Source: Ignavibacterium sp.
GTDB lineage: Bacteria > Bacteroidota > Ignavibacteria > Ignavibacteriales > Ignavibacteriaceae
Length of the DNA stretch: 64,000 nt
Assembly: GCA_032027145.1 (NCBI GenBank)
Contig: JAVSMP010000001.1
Location: forward strand, 3,229,116 to 3,293,115
Direction of reading: 5' to 3'
Below, piece after piece: positions 35,072-60,641 of this stretch. A program made the translations under genes and the position numbers. The notes beneath the pieces were generated by a model. The model saw nothing but the letters and a program-made list of their open reading frames with translations, was not told where the DNA came from and searched no databases. How positions within the stretch are numbered: position 1 is the first letter of the stretch; each line of letters opens with the position of its first letter.

Positions 35072-35124
35072 GCTTTTAAGAGCGGGGCCGACGAGACTCG
35101 AACTCGCGACCTCCTGCGTGACAG
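35072..35124 (-). repeat. attL: 53-bp copy of the tRNA-Asp 3' part
   Basis: Identical base for base to 58958-59010. It covers the 3' flank, acceptor strand, T arm and anticodon arm to the anticodon, then diverges (ATATTC instead of GCAGGC). No 5' half follows, so it is a remnant, not a gene. Confidence 0.92.
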
Positions 35125-35172
35125 ATATTCGCATTTCTGCTTTCCCGCTGTCAATTTACTGCTTTTTAGCCA

Positions 35173-35191
35173 GTGGGTACACATTGGGTAC
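35173..35191 (+). repeat. Left integrase arm-type sites
   Basis: GTGGGTAC at 35173 and TTGGGTAC at 35184, 11 bases apart, inside attL and just before the integrase gene. Matching sites occur at the right end (58865-58894). Binding by the integrase is inferred from position, phasing and repetition. Confidence 0.6.
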
Positions 35192-35213
35192 ATCCGCGAA
35201 AGGAGTATCTATT

Positions 35214-36251
35214 ATGTTTCTCACACCGCCTAACGCTAAAAGACGCTATTACCAATTAGTCTATTTTATTAATGGTAAACGAACAAAAATTTCTACTAAA
35301 ACCACAGACAAAAAAGAAGCAGAAAAATTTCTAAAGTCTTTTGTGCCTCAAATCAAAGATAAGAAAGTTGAACAAGAAAAACTAAACGAAAATACAACCA
35401 CAATAAAACTAAGCAGCTTCTTTACTGAGTATAAAATATATATTGGTAATACCTACTCTGAAAAGTACCTTAAAAAAGCTGTTATTCCTTCCTTCGCTGC
35501 TTTACAAAAAAATATCCCTGATATGCAACTCGAAACAATATCAACGAGAATCCTCGATCAGTTCATTTCTTCAGTAGCTGCCAGATCAAAATTTTGTGCT
35601 TCACTTTATTATCGTACATTGAAAGCAGCTTTTAATAAAGCTTTAGTTTGGAATTACATTGAAGTGAATCCTTTTAGCAAAATAAAAACTCCTAAGCTGC
35701 CTAAATCATTCCCGTTATTTATTTCTGAATGTGAATTGATTGAGATCCTGAATAACACAACTTCTAATTTGATGAAAGATATTTTCACGACTGCCTTTTA
35801 CACTGGTATGCGTTTGGGTGAGTTGCTAAATATGAAATGGAACTGGATTGACTTCAATCAAAATATAATCACAATCAAAAACTCTAACCAATTTATTTCT
35901 AAGAACAAACGTGAAAGAATTATCCCAATTCATCAAAAAGTTAAGGCAATTTTACAAGCTCGTTTTCTGTTAGGCAAGCCGGAAAATAATCTATTGTTTT
36001 ATAAATATGAAGATGTTAAGCTAAATGAAGATTTTGTTAGTAAGCAATTTAAGAAAGCTGTTAGGGCTGCTAAGCTTAATGAGAAAATTCACTTTCACAC
36101 TCTCCGACATTCATTCGCTTCTGCCTTAGTACAGCGAGGTATTTCTCTTTATGCAGTAAAGGAATTGTTAGGCCACGAGAATATTAAAACAACTCAAATT
36201 TATTCTCATCTGCAGAAGCAGAATTTGATGGAAGCGGTGAATCTCTTATAA
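35214..36251 (+). CDS. int: Tyrosine integrase of the element
   Basis: 345 residues. I start at the ATG at 35214 with AAAGGAG upstream; the longer frame reads back into the attachment site and is not protein-like. The N-terminal segment RRYYQLVYFINGKRTKISTKTTDKKEA is an arm-binding domain, followed by a SAM-like core-binding domain. The catalytic residues are Arg200 (GMRLGE), His295 and Arg298 (HTLRHSFAS), His321 (LLGHENIKTTQIYSH) and nucleophile Tyr330. It catalyses integration and, with a directionality factor, excision at tRNA-Asp. Confidence 0.95.
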   Translation: MFLTPPNAKRRYYQLVYFINGKRTKISTKTTDKKEAEKFLKSFVPQIKDKKVEQEKLNENTTTIKLSSFFTEYKIYIGNTYSEKYLKKAVIPSFAALQKNIPDMQLETISTRILDQFISSVAARSKFCASLYYRTLKAAFNKALVWNYIEVNPFSKIKTPKLPKSFPLFISECELIEILNNTTSNLMKDIFTTAFYTGMRLGELLNMKWNWIDFNQNIITIKNSNQFISKNKRERIIPIHQKVKAILQARFLLGKPENNLLFYKYEDVKLNEDFVSKQFKKAVRAAKLNEKIHFHTLRHSFASALVQRGISLYAVKELLGHENIKTTQIYSHLQKQNLMEAVNLL

Positions 36252-39352: not shown

Positions 39353-40441
39353 TTACAATCTATTCACCGCATCCCTCAACTCTTCCAAATCCACTCCCGC
39401 ATAAAACCTCGTAGTTACATTCACAGTAGAATGACCAAGCAGCTTTGACACAGTGAATATTGGTACCTTATTGCTCGCCCAACGAGTTGCTGCAGTTGCA
39501 CGCAAACAATGCCAGTGAAGTTCATCGGGCAGCCCGGCTTCTTTAATTATTTTCTTCAATGACTTCGACACAGTATCCTTCTTGTATTGCTTTCCGTTTT
39601 TCTGAACGAATACAAACTCTCTCAATATTTTTCCATTCTCAATTTGCCTGTTGGAATTCCTGATTAATATTTGCTCCATTTTCTCATTAAAAGGAATCCG
39701 TCTTATTTTTTTCGATTTAGTTTTAAACAGCTTATTACCGATTGTTATAACCTTGTTTTTAAAATCAACATCACTCCATCGCAGATTATTTTCTTCATCT
39801 AACCTCATTCCTGATTCAACAGCAAACAGAACCATATCTGCAATAACTTCTTTCCCTTTTCTCATTAATCCTTCACAAACAATGTTTATCTGTTCATCAG
39901 TAAAAGCAATTGGATCTTCTTTTTGTCGTTTCGGTAATTTTACTTTTAGGAAGGGATTGATTGAGATGTAATTCCAGTCAACAAAAACATTAAACATTGT
40001 TCGATACACTTTCAGATAATTATAGCAGCCAAGAGGGGCAGATTTAGAAATCTTCATCATTAAATTTTCAGCTTCTTTTCTTTCAATTGTATTTAATGAT
40101 CTGTTTCCGGGAATGAATTCTAAAAATCTTCTCTCAGCAGTCTTTGCAGTATCAACAGACTTTTTCGCAAGGTTAAACTCAATAAGTTTATTATACTCAC
40201 TAAATGCCTGTTCAACTGAAACATCTTTCCTTCCGCCTGTGGAGGACTGCTGTGCTTGTCCCGGTGAAGCGTAAGCGTAGCCGGAACCTATTCCAAACAA
40301 TCCAGCAAGAAGTTTTATCTTTTCAATATCCTCAGCAGTGAAATTTTTAAAAATCTGAAGAACATCACTTTGCGTCGAGTTTATCCCGCTTGCTGGGCTC
40401 TCTGCATTTTGCTGTTTATGTATGTTATTCAAGCTTTCCAT
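39353..40441 (-). CDS. Second tyrosine recombinase
   Basis: 362 residues. Core-binding domain about 85-180, catalytic domain 190-362 with Arg in ESGMRLDEEN, HWHCLRATAA (His-x2-Arg), GHSTVNVTTRFYAG (His and nucleophilic Tyr). It is a different subfamily from the integrase at 35214 and lacks that protein's N-terminal arm domain; instead it has a 75-residue N-terminal extension containing a REP-derived peptide (GYAYASPGQAQQSSTGG, DNA ~40228-40290). It sits between the primase and an excisionase-like gene, so it may belong to an older element absorbed into this one, or act as a resolvase or invertase. Confidence 0.88.
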   Translation of the reverse strand: MESLNNIHKQQNAESPASGINSTQSDVLQIFKNFTAEDIEKIKLLAGLFGIGSGYAYASPGQAQQSSTGGRKDVSVEQAFSEYNKLIEFNLAKKSVDTAKTAERRFLEFIPGNRSLNTIERKEAENLMMKISKSAPLGCYNYLKVYRTMFNVFVDWNYISINPFLKVKLPKRQKEDPIAFTDEQINIVCEGLMRKGKEVIADMVLFAVESGMRLDEENNLRWSDVDFKNKVITIGNKLFKTKSKKIRRIPFNEKMEQILIRNSNRQIENGKILREFVFVQKNGKQYKKDTVSKSLKKIIKEAGLPDELHWHCLRATAATRWASNKVPIFTVSKLLGHSTVNVTTRFYAGVDLEELRDAVNRL

Positions 40442-41033: not shown

Positions 41034-41450
41034 CTATTTCTTTTTTACAATATCATAACATTGTTCCTTTGTCCAATCTTTCCAACGAAAATTGTGTTCA
41101 TCATATAATTTATTTGAAGCATCTCTTAAGCTAAGATATTTTTTCTGACCTGTTTTCTGATCTTCCAAATAAGCATCATTAACAAAAGTTGCAAATTCGC
41201 CTTTTGTACCTTTCCAATCTTTTTTCAATTCATCTTTCCCATTATCTAAAAGCTTTATTTCCCTTTTGATCTCTTTATCAAAATTATATGGTGCATAAAG
41301 GCTATGGTCAATTAAAATTTTGTTGTGCTTTTTTAAGAATAGTATATCCTTAAAATATTTTTTTCTTTCTGTTCTATCTTTAATGTTCCTTCCGAAATCT
41401 TTTACCTTTTCTAAGTCAAAGTTAAAATGTTTCAGCTCGTTCTTATCCAT
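41034..41450 (-). CDS. Unknown third protein of the restriction operon
   Basis: 138 residues, highly charged (Lys/Asp/Glu), no signal or membrane segment. Features: FKDILFLKKHNKILIDHSLYAPYNFDKEI and a C-terminal SLRDASNKLYDEHNFRWKDWTKEQCYDIV. Its ATG overlaps the stop of the helicase-nuclease gene (TAATG), so it is translationally coupled and probably part of the system. I do not recognise the family. Confidence 0.65.
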   Translation of the reverse strand: MDKNELKHFNFDLEKVKDFGRNIKDRTERKKYFKDILFLKKHNKILIDHSLYAPYNFDKEIKREIKLLDNGKDELKKDWKGTKGEFATFVNDAYLEDQKTGQKKYLSLRDASNKLYDEHNFRWKDWTKEQCYDIVKKK

Positions 41451-44400
41451 TAGCTGACTATTTTGTTTATAATTTTTTCGATATAATCAGTACTTCCAAT
41501 CTGTAAAACGTTAAACTGTTCTGCTTCTTCACTATTCCTAAAATGCGCAATTTGGTGCAATGGCGTAACCGAAAGTATAAATGAATTTAGAATAAGATTA
41601 TCATCATTTAGCTCTAAATCTTTTATCTTGTTAGACAGTTGTATTTTATCGCTTTGAAATCCATCTGCCTCATTTCTTAAACCGTGTGGATCAATAAATG
41701 TTAAATATTGTTTGTCAGCTTGTTTGATCCATAAAATAAAATCTGGATAAAATCCACCGGAAGATTCAAAGTAAAAACCAAATCCTTTTCTGCTTTGATT
41801 TCTCAATAGATATAATTCCTTATCCTCAAAAAAATCTTTATTCTCTTCAATATAAGTTCTCAAATCTTGAATAAAAGTTCTTTCACCTTTATTCAATCCT
41901 TTTGGTCTAATTGAAGTAATTAATTTCTTCCTGTTGATTGCAAGTGTCTGATTATCCTCATCATCTAATAACGGCTGGTATAAATGTTCCTCAAGCCAAG
42001 TGTTATTAATAACTGTATTGTTTTTAAGATTTATCGGATATGCCGGTTCAGTGCTATTTATAATTTGCTCAATATCATTAAGAATTTGTTCGATGTTGTG
42101 CAGCGGGTTTCCTTCATCGTCAGTTTCTATCAATTCAACAACATAATCAATTCCAGCTAAATTTGGGTGGTTACTGCTTAGTGGCACCGTTTCTAAATGT
42201 TGGCCTTCGTACACATTTAATTTTCTGTTAAAGAATAATGTTATGTATTGTTCAAAAATTAGAAGCACAACTTTATTCACTTTTTTAATATCTTCATAAC
42301 TTTTAACAGCAAGCACATCATCAGTGTATAGTTCAAAATCTATTTCATTCAACAATCCCGGTAATTCAGTTTTTTCTATTCTTAGATTATTAAATCTTTT
42401 CTCTCTTTTAAATTTTAATAGACTTAAATAAATATCGTCCCATTTGATATACTTTTTTATTTTATCTTCTATTGCAGTGGTTTTTAATCTATCTGCACTA
42501 TCATTACTTTGTCCTTCTGCAGTTACCAATAGTCTTTTAGTACTTAGGTCAATAATCACCTTTATGTTTTTATTTACCTCAATCTTCACTTCTTCAGTTT
42601 GATTAAATGGAGTAATATTATCTTTCTTTTTTAGGCTGGTTAATCCAAGGTTACTTAAATTTTCCTTTGGCACAATTCTAAATATTTTCTCACTCTTTCT
42701 TACTTTAACACCTTCCTGGCTCAAATCATCTCTGAATTTTTTCATATAATCAGCATTCAATCCGAATATATTCAGCGTCTCAACAATATCAATATTTTGA
42801 TATTCATTTCGCTCACTTCTTTTAAGCGAATGATTTTTACCCCTTAAACGCACTCCTCTTCCAAATAACTGTATTATTTGAGCTCCCTCTGCACGCCCAA
42901 AATTAATTAGTCCAATTGATGAAACCCTATAGCTGTTCCATCCCTCAATAAATTTCCTCGCACCAATTAATAAGTTTATAGGCTTTTCTTTATTTGCGGA
43001 TATTGTATCAAATAAAGGCTCTGTCAGCTTATCTTGTTCAAAAGTAAATTCATTCTCCAGACTTGTCTTAAAAGTAGATACATCACCAATATTTATTAAA
43101 CCAAAATAATTTTCACTTCCTTTTAGTCTTAGTGCAATTTCCCCATCAGCTTTTGAAATTACCCATAATATAAGTTGGTCTGGTTCAACAGCATTAAATA
43201 CTTCTTTTATTATAAATCTGTATACCCTTTCTGAATCATTCAATCGTTCTTTTATGTAAATCAATTTTGTATAATAATCTTCTTTATATATTCCTTCATT
43301 TGAGAATATATTTTGAATATATCTTTTGTATTTGCTCCCGTTATCAAGAAAATCTTTAATAAACTCCAATAATATTTTAACATCACTAACTGTTACAGTA
43401 TTGTCTTCTTTCTCGCTTTTACTCGTTGCTTTTGGATTCACCGTATGCCCGATAAAAATTAGCAGCGGATTTTCAATATTGTATTCCTCAATTTCATTCT
43501 TATTATTTTTATAAAACAAAACTTGCTGCACAAATAGGAGTAAATTCAGAAGAAGATAATTTTGCTTTCCTTCATTATTCTCAATGTATCTGTTATCGCT
43601 TATATTATGAATCCAATAGTCCTTTCCGTAGCCATCTCTGTGAAATTTACCATACGAATAATCAAATATTATATTTTTTGCGTATTCATCTTGAAGCGAA
43701 CCGCTTATTTGTCCAAACGTTGCACTGTATTCAAAGGTAAAACCATTAAATCCGATTTTTTCTCTTAAAAATCTCCAAACGCTTTCATCTTCACCCGATG
43801 AGCCTTTATGTCCTTCATCTACAAAAAGAGCATTGCTTTGTTCAAATTCATCAACTCCGATTGTTACTCCTTCACCTTTTTTTGATTCTCTTATCTTATG
43901 AATATCAATTACTTTAACCTGGTCACCCATTTTATTATTTAAGTAATAGTCAGCTTCAATAGAATCGGTGGCTAAATCTTCCAAGTGCTGTTTGCTCATC
44001 ATTTCACTGGGTGTAAGCAAAATATAATTATTTGCATTTGTCCCGTAGTAATTGCTGTAGTGTTTGTATTGAAGAATATTGAAATGAAGTATAAATGTTT
44101 TCCCGGAACCCGTTGCATTCCAGTATGAAAGTTTATTTAATTCTTCTGTTTGATAATGCGGTAAGTCTAAACGCCGCGAGTTATTATATCCGTGTAAATA
44201 CTGATTCAGCTTATCACAGAATTCATATTTATCATTAAAATAATTATCCAAATAATATTCAGTAAATATTAGCGAGAAATACTGAAAATACTTTAAACTT
44301 ATTTTTCTTTCACGGCTTCTGTTAATAACTGCCAAATGCTTTATAATATTATCTTCATATCCTTTCAGTTTCAGCAGCCCAAATTGTAAAGTTTCGCGAC

Positions 44401-44542
44401 TAAGCATCTGGTAAAAAATTGAATTTCCCGGAACATCATAACCAAGTTCATAATCCTTATATTTATTCCTCAAGTCATCAAAACTTGAAAAACCAAATTG
44501 CTCCAGTAAGAAATGAAATAAAACAGTCTTGTTAGTAAGCAT
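41450..44542 (-). CDS. Type III-like restriction enzyme, helicase-nuclease (Res)
   Basis: 1030 residues. SF2 helicase with Walker A WNATGSGKT (TGSGKT at 144-149), DEGH box 242-245 (LFVDEGHKGSS), SATFGQ motif III and the C-terminal helicase motif QLFGRGVRLRGK. The C-terminal region has YPDFILWIK (Asp934) and FIDPHG (Asp951), in the place where type III Res subunits have a PD-(D/E)xK nuclease; His replaces the usual Lys. It needs its Mod partner, encoded one base away (stop/start overlap), to recognise DNA, translocate and cut. Confidence 0.88.
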   Translation of the reverse strand: MLTNKTVLFHFLLEQFGFSSFDDLRNKYKDYELGYDVPGNSIFYQMLSRETLQFGLLKLKGYEDNIIKHLAVINRSRERKISLKYFQYFSLIFTEYYLDNYFNDKYEFCDKLNQYLHGYNNSRRLDLPHYQTEELNKLSYWNATGSGKTFILHFNILQYKHYSNYYGTNANNYILLTPSEMMSKQHLEDLATDSIEADYYLNNKMGDQVKVIDIHKIRESKKGEGVTIGVDEFEQSNALFVDEGHKGSSGEDESVWRFLREKIGFNGFTFEYSATFGQISGSLQDEYAKNIIFDYSYGKFHRDGYGKDYWIHNISDNRYIENNEGKQNYLLLNLLLFVQQVLFYKNNKNEIEEYNIENPLLIFIGHTVNPKATSKSEKEDNTVTVSDVKILLEFIKDFLDNGSKYKRYIQNIFSNEGIYKEDYYTKLIYIKERLNDSERVYRFIIKEVFNAVEPDQLILWVISKADGEIALRLKGSENYFGLINIGDVSTFKTSLENEFTFEQDKLTEPLFDTISANKEKPINLLIGARKFIEGWNSYRVSSIGLINFGRAEGAQIIQLFGRGVRLRGKNHSLKRSERNEYQNIDIVETLNIFGLNADYMKKFRDDLSQEGVKVRKSEKIFRIVPKENLSNLGLTSLKKKDNITPFNQTEEVKIEVNKNIKVIIDLSTKRLLVTAEGQSNDSADRLKTTAIEDKIKKYIKWDDIYLSLLKFKREKRFNNLRIEKTELPGLLNEIDFELYTDDVLAVKSYEDIKKVNKVVLLIFEQYITLFFNRKLNVYEGQHLETVPLSSNHPNLAGIDYVVELIETDDEGNPLHNIEQILNDIEQIINSTEPAYPINLKNNTVINNTWLEEHLYQPLLDDEDNQTLAINRKKLITSIRPKGLNKGERTFIQDLRTYIEENKDFFEDKELYLLRNQSRKGFGFYFESSGGFYPDFILWIKQADKQYLTFIDPHGLRNEADGFQSDKIQLSNKIKDLELNDDNLILNSFILSVTPLHQIAHFRNSEEAEQFNVLQIGSTDYIEKIINKIVS

Positions 44543-47500
44543 TATTTCACATCCTCAAACATCAATCTCTTAAACTCTGCCTCAGTACTTTCTGCCCCAA
44601 ATCCGTTATCTGCATTGCAGTACAACTTGGCGTTCATATCAAAATAAGGCAGCGATTTTATCCAATCCCTTTCATCATCTAAACGTAACGAGTCGTCAAA
44701 CTTCCGCCAAACCACAAAATAATTTTGCTGTTTCTTTGTGCCGGTAATTATTCTATAAATTCTGCCGTTATGTTCTTCAGTTTTTATTTTGTCCACATCA
44801 ATACCGAGCAAGAAGTTGAAAGTAGTTACCAAATCTACATTCTGCAGCTTTCTTTCATTCTGCTGTAGTATTTCCATTTTGTAATTAAACGGATCTGCAA
44901 ACCTATCCACCATCATTATTGAAGCGCTGTTTTCCGCTCCTTCCCTAAATCTATATTTTATTCTGTCTTCAAATTCTAATTCAATTTCTTGTTCATCAAA
45001 AACAATGTTGTTTAAGCTGTCTTCGTATTGCTCAAGTTTTTGGTATTGTAATATCGTACTATAACCATCAAGGTTTTCTCTATCCTTTGGTTTGCCGTCT
45101 TTCCATTCAGCAGCAAACATTATTTTTTTTAATCTTTTTAAAAGTACGCTTTCAAAATACTCTCCCATTTCCATTAAAATAAATTTTCTATTCCCGTCAT
45201 CTTCTTTATTTAATTTTATCACTGCGTGACCGGTTGTACCGCTACCAGCAAAGTAATCAATTATTAAACCTTTATCGTTAAAATAAGTCTTACTTTTAAT
45301 AATAGCTTCCAAAAGCGTGATAGGCTTTGGATAATCAAATTTATTTTCATTAAATAATGAGTATAATAGCGCTGAGCCATCTTCATTTGTTCCAACTTTT
45401 ATATCTTCATTAGGCATAGAAGGAAATGGTTTTGAACTTTCACCCTCCCTAAAGAACCTTGGTAACATTTTATCCTTATCCTTTATAATAATTGTTGCTC
45501 CTTTTTCTAATTCTTCTTTAAGAAAATTTTGAGTCCACGTAAAATTTCCCTCAAGTCGTACCGGATTCATATTCATTTTATTTCTTACCCTTATTTTTTC
45601 CAACACCCTTACAATAGATGCTGTAGTTCCATATTCGCCTGGCTGTATTTCAAATTCACCGTTATCCTCATTTATAAATGTTATTTTTCCTATATCAAAA
45701 ATTAATTCTTTAATTGAATTACCATTTTTGTTCAATGGCTGGGATTCTTCTGGATCAGCTTTGCCACCGAATAAAAATTGTTTCGGATAATTTAAATCAG
45801 TAATTAATACATAATCTGATAATTTGTTTACTGTATTACTTAAATGGCCACCCGTTCTTGTTCTTCTCCATACAAAATTGCCTAAAACTCGATAACCGCT
45901 ATTTTCATATAATGAGATTGATCTTGCTAATTCATCATCACCAATGCTTTGGAATTGCAAACCGTCTTTTGCTAAAACTTTTTTTACTTTATTTAATCTA
46001 TCGCTCATCATATCAACCCACGTTGAGTGTTCAAAAGAATCTTTATATACAAATTTTCCTTGTTGTCTGTCTAATTCTGTATTGTAAGGTGGATCAATGT
46101 ATGAGAGGGTTACATTGTTCTTATATTTATTTTCAATTACATTTAATCCTTGCCAATTCTCAGAATTTATCAGTAACCCATTACTTTTTTCATCAATCCT
46201 TTCAATATAATTTAACAGTTTAAATTTTAGCCCATCATTAAAAAACTTTGTATCAATTACTAATCCCTTATTATTTTCAATTTCTTCTTTACATATTTCA
46301 TTGCTTTCGAGAAATCCTAAATCCACCCATTCATTAATTTGCTTTTTCTCTGCATCGTTTACTATTGCTTCAACAACCTCGCTGTAAACCTCTTCCGGTA
46401 TCATAGCCATTGTCATTACATATTCGCTCTGCACAACAAATTTTTTCTTTTCAAAAAGCCGCCGCTGGAAGTTCTCAAGTTCACTTAAGAAGTCTATAAT
46501 TGTGTATGCCGCTTCTCTTATTACTCCGGCTTTAACAACATTTAATTTTATTGCTTCCTGCACATCCTCTTCACGCCAGTCCGGGTCAAGAAAATTTATA
46601 GAAAGAATTTCATTCTTTAGAAAGTAATCCAGCTCTCTCATTAAAAATTTCTTAAGGTCTTTATGTATGAAGTAATCAAATTTATTTAATGAAGTGTAAC
46701 GGTTTAAGTGGTAGTAAAAGACTTTCTGCTGTTTCTTATTTACCTCACGCTCTTTACTAAAAAACAAACTTAGCTGCGGATAGTTTGTTTCGTTTATTTT
46801 TCTCTCTAAAGCAATAATTAATTGTTCATTAATTCCCTTATTATCTTTCTTAACGGACTGCTTGCTTCCCCAAGTTTCTTTTTCGTTTTCATCCGGCACT
46901 TTATAATAAAAATAAATACTTAACTTTTTATCGGCTTCGTTCCATTCATAAAAATCTTCCGCCGGAATAAATAATCTTCCTTTTTGGTTCTGGTTATTAT
47001 TAACGCTTGTTTCCACATCTTTAATTCTAAACTCTACAGTAATTTTGTCTTCGCCTTCTTCACCATTCGTAAAAACATAATTCTTAAAATTCTCTCCGGT
47101 TTTTATATAATACTGGTCGTAATTAGCCCAATAAAGCTTTACCTCCTCGCCGTCATAAGGTATCATATAGGTTTTATCGCCGGCACGCGGCTTTGTCACA
47201 AAATCGCCTTCCTCATAATAACGTTCAAAAAATCTGTAAAGCTCATTATAAACATCCGTCTCGAGTTCCTCGGAAATTCTTGCATTATCTAATTTCTCTT
47301 TTAATAAAGAATACCTGCTATATTTTTCCTTAAACAATTCAATCTGTCCATATTGATCAACTTTAGTTTCAAAGTCATTGCCATAAGTTGTTTTCAATTC
47401 GGTTGTAACGGTTTCCAAATCTCTTTTAACATCTGCGGAAGCTCTATCGGCAAGTTTCTTTTTTACTTCTTCTAACTTTTCCGGCAGCACATTATTGATA

Positions 47501-47625
47501 AATTCCTCAACATCACGGCTTCTTAATTTTAGAATCCGGTAAATACCAAAGTCCAAATCGGTATTATTTAACTGGAAAAGTTCTTTTAATAATTCAATAA
47601 AATTTTCTTTTGGATTTTGCGGCAT
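44542..47625 (-). CDS. Long beta-class DNA methyltransferase (type III-like Mod)
   Basis: 1027 residues, about 350 longer than usual type III Mod proteins. Motif IV DPPYNT is at 511-516 and motif I FAGSGTT at 792-798; this IV-before-I order defines the beta class and adenine or cytosine exocyclic-amine methylation. The first ~480 residues (LDFGIYRILKLRSRDVEEFI, coiled-coil stretches, then WREEDVQEAIKL) are an extra module found in a long-Mod subfamily. It is the first gene of a three-gene coupled operon with res and a small ORF. The target site cannot be predicted. Confidence 0.88.
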   Translation of the reverse strand: MPQNPKENFIELLKELFQLNNTDLDFGIYRILKLRSRDVEEFINNVLPEKLEEVKKKLADRASADVKRDLETVTTELKTTYGNDFETKVDQYGQIELFKEKYSRYSLLKEKLDNARISEELETDVYNELYRFFERYYEEGDFVTKPRAGDKTYMIPYDGEEVKLYWANYDQYYIKTGENFKNYVFTNGEEGEDKITVEFRIKDVETSVNNNQNQKGRLFIPAEDFYEWNEADKKLSIYFYYKVPDENEKETWGSKQSVKKDNKGINEQLIIALERKINETNYPQLSLFFSKEREVNKKQQKVFYYHLNRYTSLNKFDYFIHKDLKKFLMRELDYFLKNEILSINFLDPDWREEDVQEAIKLNVVKAGVIREAAYTIIDFLSELENFQRRLFEKKKFVVQSEYVMTMAMIPEEVYSEVVEAIVNDAEKKQINEWVDLGFLESNEICKEEIENNKGLVIDTKFFNDGLKFKLLNYIERIDEKSNGLLINSENWQGLNVIENKYKNNVTLSYIDPPYNTELDRQQGKFVYKDSFEHSTWVDMMSDRLNKVKKVLAKDGLQFQSIGDDELARSISLYENSGYRVLGNFVWRRTRTGGHLSNTVNKLSDYVLITDLNYPKQFLFGGKADPEESQPLNKNGNSIKELIFDIGKITFINEDNGEFEIQPGEYGTTASIVRVLEKIRVRNKMNMNPVRLEGNFTWTQNFLKEELEKGATIIIKDKDKMLPRFFREGESSKPFPSMPNEDIKVGTNEDGSALLYSLFNENKFDYPKPITLLEAIIKSKTYFNDKGLIIDYFAGSGTTGHAVIKLNKEDDGNRKFILMEMGEYFESVLLKRLKKIMFAAEWKDGKPKDRENLDGYSTILQYQKLEQYEDSLNNIVFDEQEIELEFEDRIKYRFREGAENSASIMMVDRFADPFNYKMEILQQNERKLQNVDLVTTFNFLLGIDVDKIKTEEHNGRIYRIITGTKKQQNYFVVWRKFDDSLRLDDERDWIKSLPYFDMNAKLYCNADNGFGAESTEAEFKRLMFEDVK

Positions 47626-57247: not shown

Positions 57248-57729
57248 TTAACAATTACTCATAGTGTTTGTATTTCTTTCTATTCCTTCGCCCTTTATTT
57301 CATCATTTTGCTTAGTGACTCCTATCGGAGACACACGCTTCATTCTTCATAAAAGGCTCTCAGTAAAACCTATTATTATCATTAATAAGGATGTAACTGT
57401 TTCTCCCGATGCTATCGGGATCAACAACTACAAAGAGATTATCACAGAACATTTGAAATTCTATCATTCACTTCGCCCTATTTCCTTCATTTCGCTTGTA
57501 CTACATTTCGTCGCTTTGCTGCCGCAAAACAAAACTCCATTTCGTTCAGCCCTGCCTGCCGGTAGGCAAGTTCATTTCGTCAATAAGGCTCTCATATAAC
57601 TTTGGCATAGCCATCCCTTCGGGAAACCTTTAGCGTCAATTGAGTGTAGCTGTGTCGCTATCGCTCCACAACTACCAGAGGAAACTCATTCTCAGCTTAT
57701 ATTTTAACCATTCTAATAAAGACATTATA
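57248..57729. repeat. REP-rich non-coding stretch
   Basis: Contains TCCCGA-TGCTA-TCGGGA (about 57404-57420), TGCCTGCCGGTAGGCA (about 57547-57562), and other short GC-rich palindromes (for example CCCTTCGGGA near 57615). No gene is supported. Confidence 0.55.
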
Positions 57730-58963: not shown

Positions 58964-59010
58964 AAGAGCGGGGCCGACGAGACTCGAACTCGCGACCTCC
59001 TGCGTGACAG
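58958..59010 (-). repeat. attR: 53-bp direct repeat within tRNA-Asp
   Basis: Perfect copy of 35072-35124. Bases 58969-59010 are the 3' 42 nucleotides of the tRNA gene, ending at the anticodon, so integration restores a complete tRNA. Confidence 0.92.
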
Positions 59011-59042
59011 GCAGGCGTTCTAACCAACTGAACTACGACCCC
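58969..59042 (-). tRNA. tRNA-Asp (anticodon GTC)
   Basis: 74 nucleotides. Acceptor GGGGTCG pairs with CGGCCCC (one T-G pair), discriminator G, CCA not encoded. The D arm is TTCAGTTGGTTAGAA. The anticodon stem CCTGC/GCAGG has loop CTGTCAC with anticodon GTC. The T loop is TTCGAGT. It is the only intact copy in the window and hosts the integrative element. On its own strand it lies directly after five tRNA-like repeats and their promoter. Confidence 0.96.
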
Positions 59043-59492
59043 GTTATACTTTTCTGTTCTAATTTTATTCTTACTGAACTCGAGACCTTCCCGACACAGT
59101 CGGGACGTTCTAACCAACTGAACTACGACCCCGTTATACTTTTCTGTTCTAATTTTATTCTTACTGAACTCGAGACCTTCCCGACACAGTCGGGACGTTC
59201 TAACCAACTGAACTACGACCCCGTTATACTATTCTGATCTAATTTTATTCTTACTTAACTCGAGACCTTCCCGACATAGTCGGGACGTTCTAACCAACTG
59301 AACTACGACCCCGTTATACTTTTCTGTTCTAATTTTATTCTTACTGAACTCGAGACCTTCCCGACACAGTCGGGACGTTCTAACCAACTGAACTACGACC
59401 CCGTTATACTATTCTGATCTAATTTTATTCTTACTTAACTCGAGACCTTCCCGACATAGTCGGGACGTTCTAACCAACTGAACTACGACCCC
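59043..59492 (-). repeat. Five 90-bp tandem repeats derived from the tRNA-Asp 5' half
   Basis: Exactly 5 x 90 bases, adjoining tRNA-Asp. On the minus strand each unit begins with the tRNA-Asp 5' acceptor strand and D arm (GGGGTCGTAGTTCAGTTGG and eight more identical bases). It then has TCCCGA-CTxTG-TCGGGA in place of the anticodon arm, AGGTC and GAGTTC remnants of the variable region and T loop, and ~35 AT-rich bases instead of the 3' acceptor strand. Two variants differ at five positions (TTTCTGTTCT/ACTGAA/CACAG versus ATTCTGATCT/ACTTAA/CATAG); the order in window coordinates is A A B A B. They cannot fold into complete tRNAs. Confidence 0.93.
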
Positions 59493-59508
59493 AATTTTTT
59501 TTGCACGG

Positions 59509-59539
59509 CAAATATATAGTTACTGCTTAATAATTCAAA
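59509..59539 (-). promoter_or_regulatory. Consensus promoter of the repeat array and tRNA-Asp
   Basis: On the minus strand TTTG (59536-59539), exactly 19 bases, then TATATTTG (59509-59516), a full match to TTTG-N19-TAnnTTTG. The transcript would start just before the first tRNA-like unit (59492), so the array is transcribed ahead of the tRNA. Confidence 0.7.
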
Positions 59540-59543
59540 ATAT

Positions 59544-60641
59544 TTAATCTCCAAATGAAATACCAACTGCTCTAGCTGCAAAAACAGCCTGATCGTCCAA
59601 TTGAACAAGCTTTTGTTTGGAGATTGCATCTTCAATTTTTACACTTTTAATTTCATTACCTTTTAATGCAACCATTTTCCCAAACTTTTTATTGGCTACC
59701 AGGTCAATAGCAAATGCACCAAATTTAGTTGATAGAATTCTATCGTAAGGTGTTGGACTTCCACCACGTTGGAGATGCCCCAAAACTGTAACTCTTGTTT
59801 CGCGACCGGTCATTTCTGCAATTTTATTTGCTACTATTTCTCCTATCCCGCCCAATTGAACAGGATCGGTTCTTTTGATGTCATTTCCTTTTGCAACAAT
59901 TTCTCCGCCAATCGGCTTAGCTCCTTCTGCTACACAAACTAATGAAAATCTTTTTCCCTTTAATTCTCTTTCACGAATTTTTTCAGCCACACTATCCCAG
60001 GAAAAAGGAATTTCAGGAATCAAAATAATATCTGCTCCTCCCGATAGTCCACCGTGTAATGCAATCCAGCCGGCATAACGCCCCATTACTTCTGTAACAA
60101 TCACACGATGATGCGATGATGCAGTTGTATGCAGTCTATCTAAAGCTTCAGCTACAACAAAAACTGCAGAATCGTGACCAAAAGTTACATCAGTTGCATC
60201 AAGATCATTATCAATTGTTTTAGGTACTCCGATTACATTTATTCCTTTATGAGAAAGTTTATGAGCAATATGCATAGTTCCATCACCACCAATAGCAATC
60301 AGAGCATCAAGTCCCCAGGTTTTATAATTCTGAACTGCAGCATCTGATTTATCCTGTATTACTATTTTCCCATTTACTTCAACAGGCCAATGATACGGAT
60401 CCCCTTTATTAGATGATCCCAATATAGTTCCACCGCGAGCAAGAATACCGGAAACATCAGAGTTTTTAAGTTCTTTTGCTTTACCTTCAACTAATCCTTC
60501 AAAACCATCAAGGATACCATAAACCGACATTCCATAATCTTCAGCTGGTTTTGTTACACCCCTGATAACTGCATTAAGTCCAGGACAATCACCGCCTCCA
60601 GTCAATATTCCTATTCTTCTTATTCCGTTTTTCTTAGGCAT
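59544..60641 (-). CDS. pfkA: ATP-type 6-phosphofructokinase
   Basis: 365 residues, AGAGG before the ATG. N-terminal ILTGGGDCPGLNAVIRG, catalytic PKTIDNDLDATDVTFGHDSA, MGRYAGWIAL and LGHLQRGGSPTPYDR are typical. The donor site is IAIGGDGTMHIA: Gly at the position where PPi enzymes have Asp, combined with Lys in PKTIDND, as in group III ATP-dependent enzymes. Predicted ATP + fructose-6-phosphate to fructose-1,6-bisphosphate. It follows rnhC by 13 bases. Confidence 0.9.
   Translation of the reverse strand: MPKKNGIRRIGILTGGGDCPGLNAVIRGVTKPAEDYGMSVYGILDGFEGLVEGKAKELKNSDVSGILARGGTILGSSNKGDPYHWPVEVNGKIVIQDKSDAAVQNYKTWGLDALIAIGGDGTMHIAHKLSHKGINVIGVPKTIDNDLDATDVTFGHDSAVFVVAEALDRLHTTASSHHRVIVTEVMGRYAGWIALHGGLSGGADIILIPEIPFSWDSVAEKIRERELKGKRFSLVCVAEGAKPIGGEIVAKGNDIKRTDPVQLGGIGEIVANKIAEMTGRETRVTVLGHLQRGGSPTPYDRILSTKFGAFAIDLVANKKFGKMVALKGNEIKSVKIEDAISKQKLVQLDDQAVFAARAVGISFGD

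What the first reader, a model, noticed from the sequence alone, without database searches (positions are those of the whole stretch)
59043..59516. Five tRNA-Asp-derived 90-bp repeats sharing a promoter with tRNA-Asp
Seen: five exact-length tandem units (variants A A B A B) each begin with the 5' half of the adjoining tRNA-Asp. Each has a TCCCGA/TCGGGA palindrome where the anticodon arm should be and lacks the 3' acceptor strand. A full TTTG-N19-TATATTTG match sits directly upstream, so the array should be transcribed ahead of the real tRNA. Inference: the units could be processed into tRNA-half-like small RNAs, act as RNase P or tRNA-modification decoys, or act as decoy integration targets for elements using this tRNA. 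They may instead be scars of REP insertion followed by slippage. I know of no described system with this design.
Basis: partly seen in the sequence, partly recalled or inferred. Interest (0 to 1): 0.85.

Follow-up and report, generated by a model that had tools for sequence, protein, structure and literature searches.

The report
tRNA-targeting GIY-YIG element footprint array
Five tandem broken copies of the tRNA-Asp gene sit in front of the real one, and they belong to a widespread, apparently undescribed family of tRNA-gene-specific elements built around a small GIY-YIG DNA-cutting enzyme.

Summary
In detail: five exact 90-bp units (A A B A B) lie between the tRNA-Asp promoter and tRNA-Asp. 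Each is a truncated tRNA-Asp copy whose anticodon arm is replaced by a TCCCGA/TCGGGA hairpin.

It is neither a one-off nor an assembly accident. In the same genome, copies with this hairpin sit at tRNA-Asn, Ala, Pro(cgg) and Pro(tgg); Val(tac) copies have a shorter TCCGA/TCGGA stem and Ser(tga) copies other palindromes. Some copies lie downstream and keep the 3' half. The Pro(cgg) and Ser(tga) units each contain a GIY-YIG endonuclease gene. A pattern scan of public genomes found 117 stretches in at least seven phyla, most beside a same-strand tRNA; 46 carry a GIY-YIG domain, always beside the hairpin.

The GIY-YIG tree clusters by target tRNA. Seven relatives carry Asp-clade nucleases at tRNA-Asp, and two of these also carry upstream hairpin units like the window's.

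Best explanation: the array is an ORF-less, tandemly amplified derivative of a tRNA-Asp-specific homing-endonuclease-like element. Cleavage and mobility are inferred, not shown. A decoy for the resident integrase is disfavoured, because the units lack its 43-bp att sequence.

The parts
58968..59042 (-). functional tRNA-Asp(gtc)
   Evidence: ARAGORN; Rfam RF00005 71.2 bits
59043..59132 (-). unit 1 (type A), adjacent to tRNA-Asp: tRNA nt 1-27 (59106-59132), hairpin (59089-59105), variable-loop/T-arm piece (59076-59088), spacer (59043-59075)
   Evidence: hairpin coordinates
59133..59222 (-). unit 2 (type A), hairpin 59179-59195
59223..59312 (-). unit 3 (type B), hairpin 59269-59285
59313..59402 (-). 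unit 4 (type A), hairpin 59359-59375
59403..59492 (-). unit 5 (type B), promoter-proximal, hairpin 59449-59465
59509..59539 (-). Bacteroidota-type promoter TTTG-N19-TATATTTG of the tRNA-Asp unit; array and tRNA both lie downstream of it
   Evidence: sequence; same motif directly before tRNA-Asp in array-free G005
59544..60641 (-). 6-phosphofructokinase-like gene (identified from its sequence, not by a family search) that ends just upstream of the promoter; conserved neighbour of the locus in relatives
   Evidence: ORF; neighbour sequence

Best explanation
The array is an ORF-less, tandemly amplified derivative of a tRNA-gene-specific mobile element. The autonomous form consists of (a) a free-standing, roughly 80-100 aa GIY-YIG endonuclease gene and (b) a partial copy of the target tRNA gene (5' part when upstream, 3' part plus terminator when downstream), in which one or more tRNA arms are replaced by hairpins, mostly of the stem TCCCGA/TCGGGA. 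Proposed working (inferred): the nuclease recognises one particular tRNA gene; break repair against the element-bearing copy installs the element next to the tRNA while an intact tRNA is kept; the stem-swapped partial copy is a displaced, cleavage-resistant remnant; out-of-register repair between the partial copies makes and changes the tandem arrays. At tRNA-Asp in this genome only the partial copy plus spacer remains, five times, inside the tRNA transcription unit. Shown here: anatomy, recurrence, presence/absence and copy-number variation, physical link to GIY-YIG genes, clustering of nuclease clades by tRNA. Not shown: cleavage, mobility, immunity, and that the ORF-less arrays derive from ORF-bearing ones.
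For: (1) Same design at several tRNAs of the genome: Asn 11 units (about 67 bp), Ala 1, Pro(tgg) 4 x 114 bp downstream, Pro(cgg) 3 x 317 bp with a GIY-YIG ORF in each, Val(tac) 4 units downstream with TCCGA/TCGGA stems and a broken GIY-YIG after them, Ser(tga) 3 x 323 bp with other palindromes and a GIY-YIG ORF in each. 24 of 36 genomic TCCCGA..TCGGGA hairpins lie in tRNA arrays. Counting arrays once, 5 of 17 loci are tRNA-adjacent, P about 3e-5 under an assumed 2.3% tRNA-proximal fraction. 46 of 117 carry a GIY-YIG domain, and all those domains lie within about 350 bp of a hairpin. (3) Not selected by tRNA or hairpin: of 29 GIY-YIG loci taken by protein score, 12 lie within 7-420 bp of a tRNA on the same strand, P about 1e-16 under an assumed 1.1% fraction. 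(4) The nuclease tree clusters by tRNA identity: 23 changes against 40.3 +/- 1.6 shuffled (0 of 500 as low); Asp 7 of 8 together, Pro(cgg) across Fidelibacterota and Ignavibacteriota, Ala(ggc) across Bacteroidota families, repeat-flanked ones nearly apart. (5) GIY-YIG genes of the Asp clade lie at tRNA-Asp in seven relatives (G006, G009, G014, G020, G031, G033, G053); G014 and G053 also have upstream 5'-half hairpin units like the window's. (6) Within the genus: G005, G001, G003 no Asp unit, G002 one, G000 five.
Against: The Asp array itself has no ORF, and the genome has no Asp-clade GIY-YIG, so it may be a dead relic or an independent tandem duplication. Upstream units (5' half) and the downstream Asp GIY-YIG units (3' half) differ in architecture. 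The intact tRNA beside the element keeps any target site inside the tRNA, so the basis of self-immunity is unexplained; a site spanning tRNA and flank is only a guess. Homing does not explain why the swapped stem is so often TCCCGA/TCGGGA. The nuclease tree rests on 78 columns and few firm branches, and near relatives contribute to the clustering. Many related nucleases are flanked by other palindromic repeats and not by tRNAs. The sample was chosen with the TCCCGA stem, so it cannot show how dominant that stem is.
Confidence: 0.62

Rival explanations
1. Neutral tRNA debris: tandem duplication of the tRNA 5' part followed by slippage or unequal crossover, with no dedicated element.
For: A/B/A/B order looks like dimer duplication. 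Copy number is unstable between sister species. The Asp array has no ORF.
Against: Arms are replaced by near length-matched perfect hairpins of convergent stem at many tRNAs and phyla. tRNA 5' parts stay identical to the adjacent tRNA. GIY-YIG genes occur beside the hairpins far beyond chance and by tRNA identity.
Confidence: 0.15
2. Functional leader RNA: the units are selected as part of the pre-tRNA (processing signal, regulation of tRNA output, or decoy for tRNA-cutting enzymes).
For: The array lies between promoter and tRNA. In the predicted minimum-energy fold the last unit's 5' acceptor strand pairs with the 3' acceptor strand of the real tRNA, and mean native cloverleaf pair probability drops from 0.73 (tRNA alone) to 0.38 with five units.
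Against: Close relatives do without it. Many units lie downstream of the tRNA, past its terminator. Swapped arms barely protect tRNA folding against a native-arm control (0.376 against 0.355). The anticodon arm, the part an anticodon nuclease would need, is removed.
Confidence: 0.13
3. Hairpin-recognition element: the TCCCGA/TCGGGA hairpin is itself the site on which a structure-specific GIY-YIG enzyme acts, and tRNA genes are hit because they are hairpin-rich; the same enzyme superfamily moves other palindromic repeats.
For: Related nucleases in the same order are flanked by GTCATCCTGAGCG..CGAAGGATGAC palindromes. Several arms of one tRNA copy can carry the same hairpin. Both-side stem changes keep pairing, for example TCCCGA/TCGGGA, TTCCGA/TCGGAA, TCCCGC/GCGGGA.
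Against: Nuclease clades follow tRNA identity, which argues for sequence-specific recognition beyond the shared hairpin. Loops resemble parental anticodon loops, so hairpins were not pasted in as cassettes.
Confidence: 0.1

Closest known systems
SegB, free-standing GIY-YIG homing endonuclease of T-even phages (PMC13096335)
   Same: GIY-YIG enzyme located beside tRNA genes, implicated in breaks within tRNA-containing sequence; needed for tandem amplification of a tRNA segment by recombination.
   Different: Phage-borne. The SegB account in that paper describes full-length tRNA amplification and no partial tRNA copies with swapped arms. Ours are chromosomal, across many bacterial phyla, with nuclease clades per tRNA. 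The Pro-type nuclease had no tblastn match in 50,697 phage records.
Mobile endonuclease ORFs with duplicated gene end in fungal mitochondria (Allomyces atp6; Glomus atp6/atp9/cox2/nad3; PMC3630166)
   Same: An endonuclease element sits next to a host gene together with a duplicated part of that gene; the displaced part stays as a remnant.
   Different: Protein genes and mitochondria; mostly LAGLIDADG; no hairpin-swapped remnants or tandem arrays; there the element brings a divergent gene end, which we could not show here.
E. coli tyrT/rtT repeats (from memory; one search found no open text)
   Same: Tandem repeats next to a tRNA, each holding a piece of that tRNA.
   Different: Downstream, 3' piece, one locus, no nuclease and no swapped arms as far as I recall.
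UPF0213 GIY-YIG proteins (PDB 1zg2, 1ywl)
   Same: Closest solved relatives of the nuclease.
   Different: Structures of hypothetical proteins; no tRNA-gene link described in the entries.

Membership tests
Homing endonuclease element (free-standing) | Encodes an endonuclease of a homing family | tested here: met
   PF01541 at E about 1e-16 to 1e-19 in units at Pro(cgg), Ser(tga) and, in relatives, Asp; not met for the ORF-less Asp array itself
Homing endonuclease element (free-standing) | Patchy presence at one conserved site among relatives | tested here: met
   tRNA-Asp: G005/G001/G003 empty, G002 one, G000 five; tRNA-Pro(cgg): roughly a quarter of about 50 surveyed loci occupied
Homing endonuclease element (free-standing) | Nuclease lineage tied to its target gene | tested here: met
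   clustering of GIY-YIG tree by tRNA identity, 0 of 500 shuffles as low; few columns, weak deep branches
Homing endonuclease element (free-standing) | Site-specific cleavage of the element-free allele and unidirectional conversion | not testable with these tools
   needs biochemistry and crosses
Homing endonuclease element (free-standing) | Insertion or linked change makes the host allele immune | tested here: inconclusive
   partial copy is stem-swapped, but the intact tRNA is unchanged at Asp
Mitochondrial-type mORF with replaced gene end | Element brings a divergent replacement of the host gene part | tested here: inconclusive
   tRNA-Asp identical in filled and empty genomes; the Pro(cgg) difference goes the wrong way
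REP/RAYT element | Prefabricated palindrome inserted with TnpA_REP (Y1) transposase | tested here: inconclusive
   arm-length hairpins with parent-like loops argue against pasted palindromes; presence of a RAYT gene was not searched
Integrase att decoy | Units carry the att core used at this tRNA | tested here: not met
   island att = tRNA nt 33-75, 43 bp, 35082-35124 and within 58968-59010; absent from the units
SegB-like tRNA amplification system | Tandem amplification at a tRNA locus dependent on the adjacent GIY-YIG gene | not tested
   arrays present with and without GIY-YIG gene; dependence not testable here

The most novel reading that the evidence does not exclude
A new class of bacterial mobile element: tRNA-gene-dedicated GIY-YIG elements whose hallmark is a stem-swapped partial tRNA copy, the TCCCGA/TCGGGA hairpin being the functional recognition or immunity site, with ORF-less tandem arrays as non-autonomous forms; related GIY-YIG lineages drive other palindromic repeats of Bacteroidota and allied phyla.
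Probability: 0.35. Interest if true: 0.92.

Novelty: new variant of a known kind. Interest (0 to 1): 0.82.

Why it matters
tRNA genes are the classic landing site of mobile DNA, but through integrases that rebuild the tRNA 3' end. A family in which each nuclease lineage appears to follow one tRNA gene, across at least seven phyla, would be a different way of parasitising tRNA genes, would explain arrays of broken tRNAs that annotation misses or miscalls as tRNA, and suggests a source for palindromic repeats in Bacteroidota. It is testable with small purified proteins and short DNA targets.

Tried and rejected
Element brings a foreign tRNA (as in Allomyces): tRNA-Pro(cgg) differs at 13 positions between occupied G000 and empty G002, while 32 other compared tRNAs differ by 0-1, but a survey of about 50 relatives shows the G000 type is the common one, mostly without an element; the odd tRNA is in the element-free species, so this is a lead only. 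Hairpins as insulators of tRNA folding: counterfactual folding gave no clear benefit. Decoy att site: units lack the att core. Known RNA family: none but sub-threshold tRNA. Phage origin of the Pro-type nuclease: no tblastn match. Plasmids: the listed matches cover about 15% of the query at its tRNA end; 190 of 200 records were not inspected. Literature: no open paper found on GIY-YIG with bacterial tRNA partial copies or palindromes; subscription journals and preprints are not covered.

Full report
OBSERVATION. tRNA-Asp(gtc) is at 58968-59042 on the minus strand. Directly upstream (59043-59492) lie five units of exactly 90 bp, types A A B A B in plus coordinates, A and B differing at four positions. 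A unit reads, on the tRNA strand: tRNA nt 1-27; TCCCGACT[G/A]TGTCGGGA (17 nt, the length of the native anticodon arm CCTGCCTGTCACGCAGG); AGGTCTCGAGTT[C/A]; 33-nt spacer. The 3' T-arm and 3' acceptor strand are missing. TTTG-N19-TATATTTG (59539-59509) precedes the array. In array-free G005 the same promoter directly precedes tRNA-Asp, so the units sit inside the tRNA transcription unit; transcription itself is predicted, not measured.

RELATIVES. The locus pfkA - tRNA-Asp is conserved in many members of the order. Hairpin-bearing partial tRNA-Asp copies occur there in G081, G062, G035, G002, G072, G043, G024, G040 and others, with other spacers and copy numbers. Their 5' part follows the local tRNA (for example GGGGTTGTAG in both tRNA and units of G081). 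G002, the same-genus species with the best match, has one unit; G005, G001 and G003 have none.

SAME DESIGN AT OTHER tRNAs. In this genome TCCCGA-N(1-9)-TCGGGA occurs 36 times (reversed control: 1), 24 of them in arrays next to tRNAs: Asn 11 units of about 67 bp, Pro(cgg) 3 x 317 bp, Ala 1, Pro(tgg) 4 x 114 bp, Asp 5 x 90 bp. Two further tRNAs have related copies with other palindromes: Val(tac), four downstream units with TCCGA..TCGGA; Ser(tga), three units with CCCCGC..GCGGGG and TCCCGCC..GGCGGGA in the D-loop region. At Asn it is the D-arm that is replaced. At Pro(tgg) and Val(tac) the units lie downstream and keep the 3' half. In relatives similar units occur at Val(gac), Ile, Gly and Thr; in some downstream Asp units it is the T-arm that is swapped (L041, L045).

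GIY-YIG LINK. Each Pro(cgg) and Ser(tga) unit contains a GIY-YIG ORF (PF01541), and a broken one follows the Val(tac) array. The other GIY-YIG matches in the genome are two long proteins (614 and 579 aa; UvrC-like by size, my inference) and one broken gene. The closest solved relatives are UPF0213 proteins 1zg2 and 1ywl. Most have a same-strand tRNA close by. A GIY-YIG domain was present in 46 of 117, always within about 350 bp of a hairpin although the loci are up to 8 kb long. In a test not selected by tRNA or hairpin, 12 of 29 GIY-YIG loci picked by protein score lie 7-420 bp from a tRNA on the same strand. Most loci without a tRNA that I inspected are flanked by GTCATCCTGAGCG..CGAAGGATGAC-type palindromic repeats, and 16 of them gave no Rfam match. 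The binomial values rest on rough assumed tRNA-proximal fractions.

TARGET SPECIFICITY. A tree of 90 GIY-YIG domains needs 23 changes of tRNA identity against 40.3 +/- 1.6 for shuffled labels (0 of 500 as low); for the species alone 13 against 18.9 +/- 0.9. Seven of eight Asp-associated nucleases form one group, Pro(cgg) nucleases from Fidelibacterota and Ignavibacteriota group together, Ala(ggc) nucleases group across Bacteroidota families. The alignment has 78 columns, only 9 branches are firmly supported, and near relatives add to the signal, so this is supportive and not proof. The seven Asp-clade genes are at tRNA-Asp of G006, G009, G014, G020, G031, G033 and G053; G014 and G053 also have upstream 5'-half hairpin units. 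That is the most direct link between the window's array and the ORF-bearing form. In G006 the GIY-YIG reading frame runs into the partial tRNA copy and stops in the hairpin loop.

NATURE OF THE HAIRPIN. In the sample the new hairpins are 16-18 nt against a 17-nt native arm, and their loops resemble the anticodon loop of their own parent more than that of other parents (4.65 against 3.90 +/- 0.09 in 2000 shuffles, z = 8.8; one spurious pair included, species not independent). So the stem was changed in place, not pasted in. That sample was chosen with the TCCCGA stem and cannot show its frequency. In Asp units found by BLAST, without a hairpin pattern, most stems are TCCCGA/TCGGGA, with variants changed on both sides: TTCCGA/TCGGAA, TCCCGC/GCGGGA. 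Pairing is kept; whether it matters in DNA or RNA is open.

MECHANISM. I favour a homing-like element specific for one tRNA gene, with the array as an ORF-less amplified derivative (0.62). SegB, a GIY-YIG enzyme of T-even phages, is required for recombination-dependent tandem amplification of a tRNA segment (PMC13096335). Fungal mitochondrial mobile endonuclease ORFs sit beside duplicated gene ends (PMC3630166). These are analogies in working; membership was not shown. Open points: how the intact tRNA escapes cutting, why TCCCGA, and whether the Asp array is dead.

ALTERNATIVES. A functional leader RNA is not excluded: in silico the units compete for the 3' acceptor strand (0.73 to 0.38), but the swapped arms do not clearly relieve this (0.376 against 0.355), and many units lie outside the leader. 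Neutral slippage explains the copy number but not the design. An integrase decoy is disfavoured: the island at 35082-58968 used tRNA nt 33-75, which the units lack.

LIMITS. G002 is probably the Ignavibacteriota isolate IGN3 (contig lengths 3,737,057 and 3,737,157), which would place the window in Ignavibacteriota; this is an inference.

Noticed in passing
35082-58968: An island integrated in tRNA-Asp: a 43-bp copy of tRNA nt 33-75 at 35082-35124, two tyrosine recombinases (35118-36251 +, 39353-40441 -), a DNA methylase plus ResIII pair (41450-47625), a DUF2326 protein and a Schlafen AlbA_2 protein; looks like a defence island.
   Followed up: partly
L255, L256 (G002, G005) against L254 (G000): tRNA-Pro(cgg) was replaced by a different sequence (13 differences) in two congeners without the element, while 32 other compared tRNAs differ by 0-1.
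   Followed up: partly
L296-L304, L308, L310, L312, L317, L320: Stand-alone GIY-YIG genes flanked on one or both sides by CCTGAGCG-NAGTCGAAGG-type palindromic repeats; these nucleases form a nearly separate group.
   Followed up: partly
L115 (G000:C1:2112148-2112370): A broken GIY-YIG gene flanked by GTCATTGCGAG..GAAGCAATC repeats.
   Followed up: no
L123, L211: ARAGORN calls some hairpin-swapped copies as genuine tRNAs (for example 'tRNA-Ser gga', 'tRNA-Leu cag'), so annotations may contain false tRNAs of this kind.
   Followed up: no
57264-57599: ORF containing the peptide LPAGRQ, the translation of a common CCTGCC..GGCAGG palindrome, as in other palindromic repeats of these genomes.
   Followed up: no
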